A stretch of 39,868 nt of DNA from an uncultured Pelagibacteraceae bacterium (GTDB lineage: Bacteria > Pseudomonadota > Alphaproteobacteria > Pelagibacterales > Pelagibacteraceae). The translations under genes were made by a program, and so were the position numbers. The notes beneath the pieces were generated by a model. The model had not been told where the DNA came from and did not search any database. It saw nothing but the letters and a program-made list of their open reading frames with translations. The stretch is taken from contig CACNFL010000011.1 of the NCBI GenBank assembly GCA_902619745.1, forward strand, positions 1-39,868, read 5' to 3'. Below are positions 1 to 2,882 of this stretch, piece by piece (the first letter of the stretch is position 1; the number at the start of each line of letters is the position of its first letter).

Positions 1-461
1 CTCTTAGTCTTATATTTAATATTTAGCTGATTAATATTAGAAGTTAGAGTAGATATATTTTCTTCTCCAATAATATTACCTAATTCATTAAGAATAGATG
101 TTTTACTTTTCACATTAAGATTATCTAGATTTTTATTATCAAAATTATAATTTGTTACTGTAAAAACAATTAATACCACACAAGCTGCAGCTAAAGCATT
201 TACTAATTTAATTTCATAATCAAACAATTTTTGAAAAATAGATTTTTTTTCTTTGATTAAAAGGTCTATAGTTCTTTGAGGAATATTTTCTTGCTCTATA
301 GATTTGTATTTTTCAAATAATAAATTATTAATCTGCCTATATTCATCTACTTTTTTTTTAGCAGTGGGATTATCTTGTATAAATTTTTCAACCTCACTAA
401 TATCTTTAGCGTCTAATTCTCCATCCACATATAATTGTAATTTAATATCGTCAATATTCAT
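1..461 (-). CDS. Anti-sigma factor, transmembrane (partial, C-terminus beyond window)
   Basis: Reading frame open from an ATG at 461-459 to the window edge, 153 residues seen. The N-terminus (YVDGELDAKD near residues 11-20, then a charged helix with KKKVDEYRQ) looks like the cytoplasmic sigma-binding domain of anti-sigma factors. One membrane helix follows at about residues 86-103 (LVNALAAACVVLIVFTV), and the rest would be periplasmic, rich in Asn and Ser. The HxxxCxxC zinc motif of ZAS-type anti-sigma factors such as ChrR is absent. The start codon overlaps the sigma-factor stop as ATGA, which implies translational coupling. Inferred role: holds the upstream ECF sigma factor at the inner membrane until an envelope signal arrives. 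The signal is unknown. The family call rests on architecture and position rather than strong sequence recognition. Confidence 0.75.
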   Translation of the reverse strand, partial: MNIDDIKLQLYVDGELDAKDISEVEKFIQDNPTAKKKVDEYRQINNLLFEKYKSIEQENIPQRTIDLLIKEKKSIFQKLFDYEIKLVNALAAACVVLIVFTVTNYNFDNKNLDNLNVKSKTSILNELGNIIGEENISTLTSNINQLNIKYKTK

Positions 462-973: not shown

Positions 974-993
974 ATGACTAAATAATTATATTA

Positions 994-1012
994 GTCTAAT
1001 GTTATATTAGAC
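994..1012. repeat. Short inverted repeat next to the minus-strand -10-like element
   Basis: Arms GTCTAAT (994-1000) and ATTAGAC (1006-1012) form a perfect 7-base inverted repeat around a 5-base centre. It overlaps the proposed minus-strand -10-like TAGACG (1008-1013) and lies upstream of the sigma-factor start at 973. It could be a repressor operator or simply part of the promoter. There is no T-tract in either direction, so a terminator is unlikely. Confidence 0.5.
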
Positions 1013-1063
1013 GAGCAAATAAAGTATTTATTCGATCGAATAATTAAAGACTTTATTCGTCTA
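1008..1063. promoter_or_regulatory. Symmetric divergent promoter, probably ECF-dependent
   Basis: A 16-base perfect palindrome TTATTCGATCGAATAA (1028-1043) is flanked at equal distance by TAGACG (1008-1013) and CGTCTA (1058-1063). All four elements share one axis at 1035.5. Read outward in each direction this is CGAAT, 16 bases, CGTCTA, which resembles the layout of ECF promoters (a -35 containing GAA, a 16-17 base spacer and a -10 beginning CGTC). The spacers themselves are mostly not symmetric. The plus copy would serve the gene at 1085, where AAAGGAG (1071-1077) is the ribosome site. The minus copy would serve the sigma factor at 973. Promoter function is inferred; the symmetry is seen directly. 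Confidence 0.6.
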
Positions 1064-1084
1064 TGTTAATAAAGGAGAAAAAAC

Positions 1085-2458
1085 ATGAAAAATAAGCAAT
1101 ATAATAGACTTTTTGACAAGTCTTTAAAATTAGTAATTGCTACAATTTTTTCATTTTCACTTATTAACAGTCCAATTCTTTTTAAACTGACTGATATTTC
1201 TGAATTTGAATCTGTAGCTTTTGCTAATCAAGGTAAAGGTAAGGGGAATTCTGGTGGCAATGGAAATCAGGGAAATAATAATTCTTCTTCTTCAAAAGCA
1301 TCAAGTGAAGCATCTAAGGAAGCAGAGAAAGCTAGTAAAGAAGCAGAAAAAGCAGCAGAGAAAGCTAGCAAAGAAGCAGAAAAAGCAGCAGAGAAAGCTA
1401 GCAAAGAAGCAGAAAAAGCAGCAGATAATGCTAGCAAAGAAGCAGAAAAATCTGCAAAGAAGGCAGAAAAAGAAGCAGAGAAACAAATTAAGTTTACCAA
1501 AAAAGTAGATAAAAAAATTGGTAAGGCTTTTGAAAAATATGCAAAAGATATTTCTAAAGCACAAGATAAATATCAAAAAGCTGCTGAAAAAATAGTTGAA
1601 GCTAAAAATCCTGATAAAAAAATTCAGCAAGTAGAAGATAAGTTAGCAAATAGAATATCTGATGCTGATGATAAGTTTATCGAGGATTTAAACAAGGTAT
1701 CAAAACAGTTAGTTAAAAATGAAAGTGTATCTTTAGTCAATAGCGGATGGGTTAGCGATAAGGTTTACTCTAAAGATTTTGTAAATCATGGACAAAGAGT
1801 TTCAACTTATGTTGAAATAGCTAAAGCTCAGGGTCTACCCGCATATGTTGGTGCCTTACAAGCAAACTTTGGTAATCCATACGAAACAGGAATAGTTGAT
1901 TTACAAAACCAAATAACTGATTTGAATAATCAAATTATTCAAAATAATGAGCTAATTGGAACTTTGAATAATCAAATTAACTTAAATAATCAAACTATTG
2001 ATGGAAATCTTGCAACAATAACTGTTCTACAGACTGAAACAACAACTTTAAATAATCAGTTAACAGATTTAAATAATCAAATAACTGATCTTAATACTCA
2101 GTTAAATAATACTGAATTAACTGAAGAAGAAGTTGCTGGTATTCAAGAACAAATTGATGCTCTTAATAATAATGCTACAGAGTTAAATGCTCAAATAGCT
2201 ACAACAGAGACTCAATTAAATACTGTTCAAGGTGAGATAACTACTTTAGAAACAGAGATAGCAAATTCAACAAATGAAATAGCTAATCTTGAAACTGATA
2301 TAGTTAACGCTACTAATAACATTACAACTACTGAAGCAGAGTTAACTTTAACAATTGAAAATGTTAAACCAGGTGTCGGTGTTGATAGCGGCTGGGAAAC
2401 AGTAAATCTAGATATAAATAATGATGGTGTTGTTAATGAGGCGGATATCGATGCTTAA
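1085..2458 (+). CDS. Secreted repeat-rich coiled-coil protein with C-terminal dockerin/EF-hand-type calcium loop
   Basis: 457 residues, family not recognised. The N-terminus is a long signal peptide (hydrophobic at about residues 16-38, possible cleavage after AFA near residue 48). Next comes a Gly/Asn/Ser linker, then a Lys-Glu-Ala helix at about 75-170 built partly from 11-residue repeats (unit EKASKEAEKAA). A less repetitive middle spans about 180-270. Continuous heptads of the type LNNQITD run from about 273 to 427 and predict a rod of some 150 residues. The tail DINNDGVVNEAD (443-454) matches a dockerin-type calcium loop, with ligand positions Asp, Asn, Asp and Asp. A good Shine-Dalgarno site, AAAGGAG (1071-1077), lies 7 bases before the ATG. 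It is divergent from the ECF sigma gene and is followed by an intrinsic terminator. Inferred role: extracellular or envelope filament or spacer controlled by the sigma factor. Confidence 0.8.
   Translation: MKNKQYNRLFDKSLKLVIATIFSFSLINSPILFKLTDISEFESVAFANQGKGKGNSGGNGNQGNNNSSSSKASSEASKEAEKASKEAEKAAEKASKEAEKAAEKASKEAEKAADNASKEAEKSAKKAEKEAEKQIKFTKKVDKKIGKAFEKYAKDISKAQDKYQKAAEKIVEAKNPDKKIQQVEDKLANRISDADDKFIEDLNKVSKQLVKNESVSLVNSGWVSDKVYSKDFVNHGQRVSTYVEIAKAQGLPAYVGALQANFGNPYETGIVDLQNQITDLNNQIIQNNELIGTLNNQINLNNQTIDGNLATITVLQTETTTLNNQLTDLNNQITDLNTQLNNTELTEEEVAGIQEQIDALNNNATELNAQIATTETQLNTVQGEITTLETEIANSTNEIANLETDIVNATNNITTTEAELTLTIENVKPGVGVDSGWETVNLDINNDGVVNEADIDA
1325..1456 (+). repeat. 33-bp in-frame tandem repeat, about four copies
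   Basis: Units begin at 1325, 1358, 1391 and 1424. The first three are nearly identical in DNA (for example AAAGCTAGCAAAGAAGC shared with a single T/C change); the fourth has diverged at both ends. Each unit encodes 11 residues, EKASKEAEKAA. The near identity at synonymous positions suggests recent duplication by slippage or unequal recombination, so copy number may vary between strains. Confidence 0.9.
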
Positions 2459-2882
2459 ATTATTTATAAAAAAATTCGGAAAGCCCCAATTTAAGTTGGG
2501 GCTTTTTGTATTAATTTTATTTACAATTTTTAACGGACAGTCTTTTGCTAAACATGAGGGTTTGGAAGAGAGATTATATAGTAAAATGACAAATTTTAAT
2601 GTTAAGAGAGCAACAGAGAATTTAATGCTTGCACTAGAAACTAAGCCAGATGGAGAGAAACATGTATGGAAAAGTGGATCTTACAAAGGCTACATCATTC
2701 CAAAAACTACTTTTATTAATTTAGAAGGATATTTTTGCAGAACTTACCTTGAGGTTTTAGTTAGAAGAGCTGAATATAATATGTATGATAATACAGCTTG
2801 TAGAGATCATGATGGTGAATGGGTGTGGATTGAGACAACTAGTGCCAACGAAACTCAAGGTAACGTAAAAATTAATCACTAA
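2451..2882 (+). CDS. Small exported protein resembling the 17-kDa / RT0821-type surface antigen domain
   Basis: 143 residues from ATG 2451, which overlaps the end of the preceding gene by 8 bases. An in-frame ATG at 2421 also exists but lies deeper in that gene. The signal peptide reads KLGLFVLILFTIFNGQSFA, with likely cleavage before KHEG. The mature C-terminal part has the pattern FCRTYLEVLVRR, then TACRDHDGEWVW. This resembles the two-cysteine beta domain (CREYQ...GTACRQPDGxW) of alphaproteobacterial 17-kDa surface antigens. There is no lipobox, so the product is predicted to be soluble periplasmic or surface-attached. An intrinsic terminator hairpin (2480-2507) lies inside the signal-peptide codons, which makes its expression dependent on read-through. 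The function of the domain is unknown. Confidence 0.7.
   Translation: MLKLFIKKFGKPQFKLGLFVLILFTIFNGQSFAKHEGLEERLYSKMTNFNVKRATENLMLALETKPDGEKHVWKSGSYKGYIIPKTTFINLEGYFCRTYLEVLVRRAEYNMYDNTACRDHDGEWVWIETTSANETQGNVKINH
2480..2507 (+). terminator. Rho-independent terminator inside the coding start of the next gene
   Basis: AAAGCCCCAA (2480-2489) pairs perfectly with TTGGGGCTTT (2496-2505) around a 6-base loop and ends in TTTTT (2503-2507). It lies 21 bases after the stop of the secreted-protein gene. The same bases are codons 10-19 of the gene starting at 2451, so it can act as terminator for the first gene and attenuator for the second. Confidence 0.85.

What the first reader, a model, noticed from the sequence alone, without database searches (positions are those of the whole stretch)
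1008..1063. Mirror-symmetric divergent ECF promoter between a sigma factor and a secreted protein
A perfect 16-base palindrome (1028-1043) and two flanking hexamers, TAGACG (1008-1013) and CGTCTA (1058-1063), share one exact axis at 1035.5. Outward on each strand this reads CGAAT, 16 bases, CGTCTA, the layout expected of an ECF promoter. The spacers are largely asymmetric, so only the promoter-like elements keep the symmetry. This suggests one compact site where the sigma factor drives its own operon and its target with two back-to-back -35 elements sharing a palindrome. Only one polymerase may fit at a time, which would force a choice between directions.
Basis: partly seen in the sequence, partly recalled or inferred. 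Interest (0 to 1): 0.75.

Follow-up and report, generated by a model that had tools for sequence, protein, structure and literature searches.

The report
Two-way mirror promoter in SAR11
In a few ocean SAR11 bacteria, a DNA site with exact mirror symmetry, whose key elements are identical in four related genomes, sits between a sigma-factor gene and genes for two likely exported proteins, and likely works as a two-way promoter through which the sigma factor would switch on both sides at once.

Summary
The 16-bp palindrome (1028-1043) and the mirrored TAGACG/CGTCTA share one axis at 1035.5; 4 of 20,000 shuffled gaps do as well. In 4 of 4 orthologous gaps (two clades) both TCGAATAA halves and both CGTC cores sit at identical spacing: 24 of 24 columns invariant, against 12 of 28 spacer columns. 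The full CGTCTA is kept in 5 of 8 half-sites. The elements match ECF26-type promoters: 7 of 10 Sinorhizobium sequences checked read GGAAT or CGAAT, N16-17, CGTC or CGTT (PMC6180224). The palindrome is two 7-bp -35 elements back to back around a 2-bp centre. Strongest support: in one relative, a tandem copy of the target gene has a one-way version, CGAAT-N16-CGTC, without the mirrored half, which argues against a dimeric-repressor operator. The site belongs to an accessory cassette (sigma, anti-sigma, two likely exported proteins) between recA and alaS, in a group described as having two sigma factors. Bidirectional promoters built on a shared -10 are known; one built on fused -35 elements of an ECF sigma factor is, as far as I found, a new variant. 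Two-way activity and one-polymerase-at-a-time are inferred, not shown.

The parts
1008..1013 (-). -10 element (CGTCTA) of the sigma-side promoter; core CGTC
   Evidence: CGTC invariant at offset 23-26 from the axis in 4 of 4 sigma-side half-sites
1028..1034 (-). -35 element CGAATAA of the sigma-side promoter (left half of the palindrome)
   Evidence: invariant in 4 of 4 gaps
1035..1036 (.). 2-bp centre (AT) between the two -35 elements; symmetry axis 1035.5
   Evidence: invariant in 4 of 4 gaps
1037..1043 (+). -35 element CGAATAA of the target-side promoter (right half of the palindrome)
   Evidence: invariant in 4 of 4 gaps; CGAATA also in the one-way copy in L087
1058..1063 (+). -10 element (CGTCTA) of the target-side promoter; core CGTC
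   Evidence: CGTC invariant in 4 of 4 target-side half-sites and in the one-way copy
1070..1071 (+). predicted transcription start, target side
   Evidence: inferred: 12 and 13 bases past the first base of CGTT/CGTC at SMa0142 and SMc04049, whose printed sequences end at the mapped start (PMC6180224 Table 1)
1000..1001 (-). predicted transcription start, sigma side
   Evidence: same inference as for the target side
1071..1077 (+). Shine-Dalgarno-like AAAGGAG of the target gene; none seen by eye at that distance before the sigma gene
   Evidence: AAGGAG kept on the target side in 4 of 4 gaps and in L087
458..973 (-). ECF sigma factor, 171 aa
   Evidence: Pfam Sigma70_r2 and Sigma70_r4_2; 32% identical (52 of 165 columns) to S. 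meliloti RpoE6
3..461 (-). likely anti-sigma factor, cut off by the contig end; overlaps the sigma gene by 4 bases; 202 aa in L005 and L007, 201 in L006
   Evidence: gene order in 4 of 4 loci; local match to the S. meliloti EcfR6 frame, E = 8e-5 for that single comparison, 70 columns; weak match to an anti-sigma model far below its cut-off (23.3 of 200 bits); no relevant Pfam match
1085..2458 (+). target gene 1: 457-aa likely exported coiled-coil protein (hydrophobic start, by eye) with a calcium-repeat-like DINNDGVVNEADID end
   Evidence: sequence; weak coiled-coil matches only, below cut-offs; beside the sigma gene in L005 and L007, cut at the contig end in L006
2451..2882 (+). target gene 2: 143-aa likely exported protein, faintly like 17-kDa surface antigens; start overlaps the stop of gene 1
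   Evidence: 101 homologues; 17kDa_Anti_2 listed for 19 of 26 members at E up to 1, best 0.0004; 12.6 bits against a cut-off of 26.6 for the window's own protein

Best explanation
The 56-bp mirror site at 1008-1063, whose -35 and -10 core elements are invariant in four related SAR11 gaps, is likely a single two-way promoter made of two back-to-back ECF26-type promoters whose -35 elements are fused into the palindrome, from which the neighbouring ECF sigma factor would transcribe both its own sigma/anti-sigma operon and a divergent operon for two likely exported proteins. Shown: symmetry, spacing, conservation, gene order, and a one-way copy of the same element upstream of a duplicated target gene. 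Inferred: when the anti-sigma factor releases the sigma factor, sigma region 4 binds either 7-bp CGAATAA half and region 2 opens the matching CGTC, in one of two orientations. Inferred: the two half-sites lie 2 bp apart and the predicted starts about 70 bp apart, so two polymerases cannot load together. At high activity, target transcription would therefore compete with sigma autoactivation and cap the positive feedback. Both arms carry the same promoter elements, but only the target arm has a Shine-Dalgarno sequence, so protein output would lean to the target.
For: Exact mirror layout, 4 of 20,000 shuffles. Element columns invariant 24 of 24 against 12 of 28 spacer columns, Fisher p = 3e-6; between the two clades the spacers are 14-15 of 28 identical, near the level of third codon positions in the sigma gene (97-102 of 172). 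CGTC at the same offset in 9 of 9 half-sites, including the one-way copy in L087, where the mirrored half is missing (TTTTAA before TCGAAT); that motif on the sense strand arises in 6 of 200,000 mononucleotide shuffles of that gap. The composite occurs in 3 of 399 genus genomes, exactly the 3 with an ortholog of at least 80% identity. Of 10 ECF26-linked S. meliloti promoter sequences taken from PMC6180224 Table 1, 4 read CGAAT/GGAAT-N16-17-CGTC (SMc01022, SMc04291, SMc04049, rpoE4), 3 the same with CGTT at N16 (SMa0142, SMa0144, SMa0148) and 3 do not fit; SMc01022 has CGAATAA and CGTCTA as here, with one base more between. The paper gives the group consensus as GGAATA/GT.
Against: No transcript, binding or mutant data for this sigma factor were available. 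The four gaps fall into two clades (window with L005, L006 with L007), so conservation is essentially one deep comparison, and the Fisher test treats columns as independent. The last two bases of the -10 hexamer are not kept (5 of 8). In the best-studied relative, rpoE6, the target side has the ECF26 promoter but the mapped start of the sigma gene has RpoD/RpoH-like motifs and no mirrored half; the paper still argues for autogenous control there, partly by a promoter inside rpoE6, and reports that RpoE3 of the same group does not seem to activate its own operon. Group assignment rests on 32% identity and the motif. The spacer in the mapped CGTC-type ECF26 sites is 17 in 3 of 4, 16 here. Competition between polymerases was not seen at low basal activity in five E. 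coli bidirectional promoters (PMC12825309).
Confidence: 0.82

Rival explanations
1. The palindrome is an operator for a dimeric DNA-binding regulator that controls both divergent genes; the CGTC hexamers are unrelated or belong to overlapping promoters.
For: A perfect 16-20 bp palindrome in a divergent gap is the classical look of an operator; 18 consecutive columns around the axis are invariant.
Against: The one-way copy in L087 keeps one half and CGTC at the same spacing but not the mirrored half. No regulator gene other than sigma/anti-sigma is seen in the cassette. Elsewhere in 4 carrier genomes the palindrome is found only with 2 mismatches, in 4 places, with 2 places in the reversed control. 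Each half is an ECF26-like -35 sequence at the right distance from CGTC.
Confidence: 0.08
2. Only one direction is a real sigma-dependent promoter; the other half is residual or coincidental symmetry, and the sigma gene is transcribed by the housekeeping polymerase (a TATAAT lies at 990-985 on the minus strand).
For: At S. meliloti rpoE6 only the target side has a mapped ECF26 promoter in the gap, and rpoE6's own start has RpoD/RpoH-like motifs (PMC6180224). The sigma gene here lacks a Shine-Dalgarno sequence (by eye).
Against: The sigma-side -35 and CGTC are as invariant as the target-side ones (8 of 8 and 4 of 4 columns on each side), with exact spacing, while the spacer drifted. A one-way site in the same lineage does not keep the mirror half.
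Confidence: 0.09
3. The mirror symmetry serves a DNA or RNA secondary structure (cruciform or hairpin) rather than promoter recognition.
For: The window strand folds far better than shuffles (z = -4.4), and two of three relatives still fold well (z = -3.6 and -2.7).
Against: Folding fades with divergence (z = -1.6 in L007) and the predicted shapes differ, because the spacers do not stay complementary; only the promoter-like elements keep symmetry.
Confidence: 0.01

Closest known systems
ECF26 sigma factors and promoters of Sinorhizobium meliloti (RpoE1, RpoE4, RpoE6; PMC6180224)
   Same: ECF sigma gene followed by an anti-sigma gene; RpoE6 is transcribed divergently from its target, a serine protease; promoters of the form GGAAT/CGAAT-N16-17-CGTC or CGTT in 7 of 10 sequences checked
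   Different: In the rpoE6 gap only the target side has a mapped ECF26 promoter and there is no mirrored half; the target proteins show no significant BLASTP match
Sigma-70 bidirectional promoters of E. coli (Warman et al., PMC12825309)
   Same: One pseudo-symmetric sequence read by polymerase in two orientations; opposing polymerases exclude each other
   Different: There the symmetric element is a shared -10 and starts are most often 18 (also 10 or 23) bp apart; here the -35 elements are fused, the -10 elements face outward and predicted starts are about 70 bp apart
Autoregulated ECF sigma/anti-sigma operons in general (recalled)
   Same: The sigma factor is predicted to activate its own operon and a neighbouring target
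   Different: The promoters are usually separate sequences; here they are one mirror-symmetric site

Membership tests
ECF (group 4) sigma factors | sigma-70 regions 2 and 4 only, short protein | tested here: met
   Sigma70_r2 and Sigma70_r4_2 above cut-off in 171 aa; TIGR02937 sigma70-ECF above cut-off (64.2 against 42.9 bits)
ECF26 group | group-specific sequence profile or tree placement | tested here: inconclusive
   No ECF-group models at hand; the closest characterised relative found is RpoE6 (ECF26), 32%; PRK12511 matches at 85 bits, below its 185-bit cut-off
ECF26 group | promoter -35 GGAATA, -10 GT, spacing as mapped | tested here: met
   CGAATA in 9 of 9 half-sites and CGTC at N16; first base C instead of G, as in mapped SMc01022; mapped spacers 16 or 17
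ECF26 group | downstream anti-sigma with N-terminal anti-sigma domain, membrane helix, periplasmic C-terminal domain | tested here: inconclusive
   Gene order met; N-terminal match to the EcfR6 frame, no relevant Pfam domain, low-confidence model (mean pLDDT 58.5) with N-terminal helices, a long helix and a C-terminal beta part
Bidirectional promoters of the E. coli type | shared -10 element, starts about 10-23 bp apart | tested here: not met
   44 bp lie between the two CGTC cores and the -35 halves meet at the axis
Bidirectional promoters in the wide sense | transcription in both directions from one site | not testable with these tools
   no expression data
Palindromic operator of a dimeric regulator | both halves kept wherever the regulator acts | tested here: not met
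   the one-way copy in L087 lacks the mirrored half

The most novel reading that the evidence does not exclude
This is a -35-centred bidirectional promoter: two sigma-4 sites fused into one palindrome, so a single ECF holoenzyme docks in either orientation. It would act as a built-in one-polymerase governor, in which every target transcript costs a chance to make more sigma factor. A lineage with otherwise two sigma factors would thus hold a self-limiting switch in one 56-bp site.
Probability: 0.45. Interest if true: 0.68.

Novelty: new variant of a known kind. Interest (0 to 1): 0.52.

Why it matters
SAR11 is described as having only two sigma factors (sigma-70 and sigma-32; passage in PMC13198564). 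Here a few lineages carry what looks like a complete accessory ECF switch with its own promoter sequence. The mirror design separates promoter identity (equal on both sides) from output (set by ribosome-binding sites). It would also make polymerase competition at an autoregulated promoter testable in a minimal piece of DNA, and it could serve as a compact two-way part for gene circuits.

Tried and rejected
Operator for a dimeric regulator: rejected by the one-way copy and by the absence of other good copies. Cruciform or hairpin: disfavoured by decay in relatives. A hairpin-like repeat GTCTAAT..ATTAGAC at 994-1012 beside the sigma-side -10 is near-kept in L005 but not in L006 or L007 (read by eye), so dropped.

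Wider regulon: CGAATAA-N14-CGTCT with up to 1 mismatch in 4 carrier genomes gave 15 places, 8 of them in the gap itself, 7 elsewhere against 26 in the reversed control. CGAAT-N15..18-CGTCT gave 9 places, 7 in the gap, 2 elsewhere against 6 control matches. Both patterns miss the one-way promoter in G212, whose -10 is CGTCA, so further targets with looser -10 elements are not excluded; three of the four genomes are 76-83% complete.

Mirrored ECF26-type pairs elsewhere: 6 of 289 class genomes matched, one being the window's own; the 5 others all lie inside stop-free frames (largest covering frame 272-1018 codons; in G+C-rich DNA this suggests but does not prove coding) with little symmetry (8-14 mirrored of 26-30 positions), and the control gave 1. 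They are read as chance. In the 30 distant ECF loci held (189 of 289 genomes had matches; 30 loci were fetched) a looser two-way scan over the whole loci found 47 single matches in 22 loci and 0 back-to-back pairs, with the window as positive control. An earlier scan of the same loci looked at one side only and is superseded. The distant ECF gene of G385 (24% identity) has no such site by eye. A further weak hit, G438 (25%, 71 residues), was not pursued.

Full report
What is there. The gap between the ECF sigma gene (458-973, minus) and a likely exported coiled-coil gene (1085-2458, plus) holds a perfect 16-bp palindrome and two mirrored hexamers around one axis at 1035.5. Read outward, each strand gives CGAATAA-N14-CGTCTA, that is CGAAT-N16-CGTCTA, found nowhere else in the genome as held. 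Shuffles give the palindrome in 271 of 20,000 and the palindrome plus a mirrored run of six in 4 of 20,000.

Conservation. Orthologues of the sigma factor with at least 80% identity are rare: 3 of 399 genus genomes, the window's own included (a fourth hit is only 24% identical). Of 297 order genomes 3 matched: the window's own, G494 (96%, site sequences as in L005) and a weak partial hit (25%). With the window this makes four distinct gaps. In all four, TCGAATAA on both sides of the axis and CGTC on both sides are invariant at identical offsets (24 of 24 columns), while 12 of 28 spacer columns are (Fisher p = 3e-6). The four gaps form two clades, so this is essentially one deep comparison; across it the spacers are 14-15 of 28 identical and third codon positions of the sigma gene 97-102 of 172. 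The full hexamer CGTCTA is kept in 5 of 8 half-sites. The composite pattern occurs in exactly the 3 of 399 genomes that hold a close orthologue.

What the elements are. I took ten ECF26-linked promoter sequences of S. meliloti from PMC6180224 Table 1 (passages and one section seen). Four fit CGAAT/GGAAT-N16-17-CGTC, three fit with CGTT at N16, three do not fit. SMc01022 reads CGAATAA followed by CGTCTA, the same letters as here with one more base between. The closest characterised protein found, RpoE6 of that group (32%; its locus L059 carries no annotation and was identified by the paper's rpoE6 and SMa0142 promoter stretches), is also divergent from its main target, but its gap carries a mapped ECF26 promoter on the target side only. 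So the palindrome here is best read as two complete 7-bp -35 elements plus a 2-bp centre (7+2+7 = 16).

The discriminating case. In genome G212 the cassette holds a second, tandem coiled-coil gene. The 103 bp before it contain a terminator-like hairpin and then TCGAAT-N16-CGTC, the same Shine-Dalgarno sequence and the start codon; the bases to the left of TCGAAT are TTTTAA, not the mirror half. A one-way gene thus keeps one half of the site. That is what two fused promoters predict and what a dimer operator or a cruciform does not. The two contig pieces of G212 are not linked in the assembly, so that they form one cassette is inferred from gene content (sigma side on one, alaS on the other).

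Setting. Sigma, anti-sigma (overlapping by 4 bp) and the target pair sit between recA and alaS in L005 and L007; L006 shows the recA side and the window the alaS side. In 7 of 8 other SAR11 genomes examined (none with the sigma gene) a motif in alaS lies 376-419 bp after one near the end of recA; in the eighth another insertion lies there. The second target protein occurs in 3 of 235 genus genomes, the same three that carry the sigma factor. The cassette thus looks like an accessory unit that travels with its promoter.

How it probably works (inferred). Release of the sigma factor from its anti-sigma factor gives a holoenzyme that can dock on either half. From the starts of two S. meliloti promoters (12 and 13 bases past the -10 core), transcription should begin near 1070 and 1001. 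The sites are too close for two polymerases, so at high activity the directions should compete, as shown for activated sigma-70 bidirectional promoters but not at their basal level (PMC12825309, abstract and introduction). A strong ribosome-binding site is seen only on the target side in all four gaps, so equal promoters would give unequal protein.

Limits. There are no expression data. Membership in ECF26 is supported by the motif and the nearest homologue but not by a group model, and the mapped relatives differ in spacer length by up to one base. Export of the target proteins is read by eye from hydrophobic starts. Scans for further targets were strict and missed the G212 one-way site, so the regulon may be larger. 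The literature search covered open-access papers only.

Noticed in passing
window 2477-2508: A strong terminator-like hairpin (AAAGCCCCAATTTAAGTTGGGGCTTTTT) lies inside the start of the 143-aa gene (residues KPQFKLGLF), whose ATG overlaps the stop of the upstream gene. The stem arms are identical in L005 and L007 and KPQ recurs in 10 of 26 aligned homologues. This suggests translation-coupled attenuation between the two target proteins.
   Followed up: partly
L087 1-2537 (genome G212): Tandem duplication of the coiled-coil target gene within the cassette; the second copy has its own terminator-then-promoter leader.
   Followed up: yes
L072 2640-4149: In a SAR11 genome without the cassette, the place after recA holds a different insertion, with a GNSGGP-like protease frame on the minus strand (by eye); the recA-alaS junction may be a hot spot for accessory genes.
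   Followed up: no
window 985-990 (-): TATAAT 12-17 bases upstream of the sigma start codon, which has no Shine-Dalgarno sequence by eye; possibly a near-leaderless housekeeping promoter giving basal sigma factor. The promoter scan did not list it.
   Followed up: no
L009 (genome G385): A second, distant ECF sigma/anti-sigma-like pair in a SAR11 genome (24% identity), next to a frame with MORN-like repeats (by eye).
   Followed up: partly
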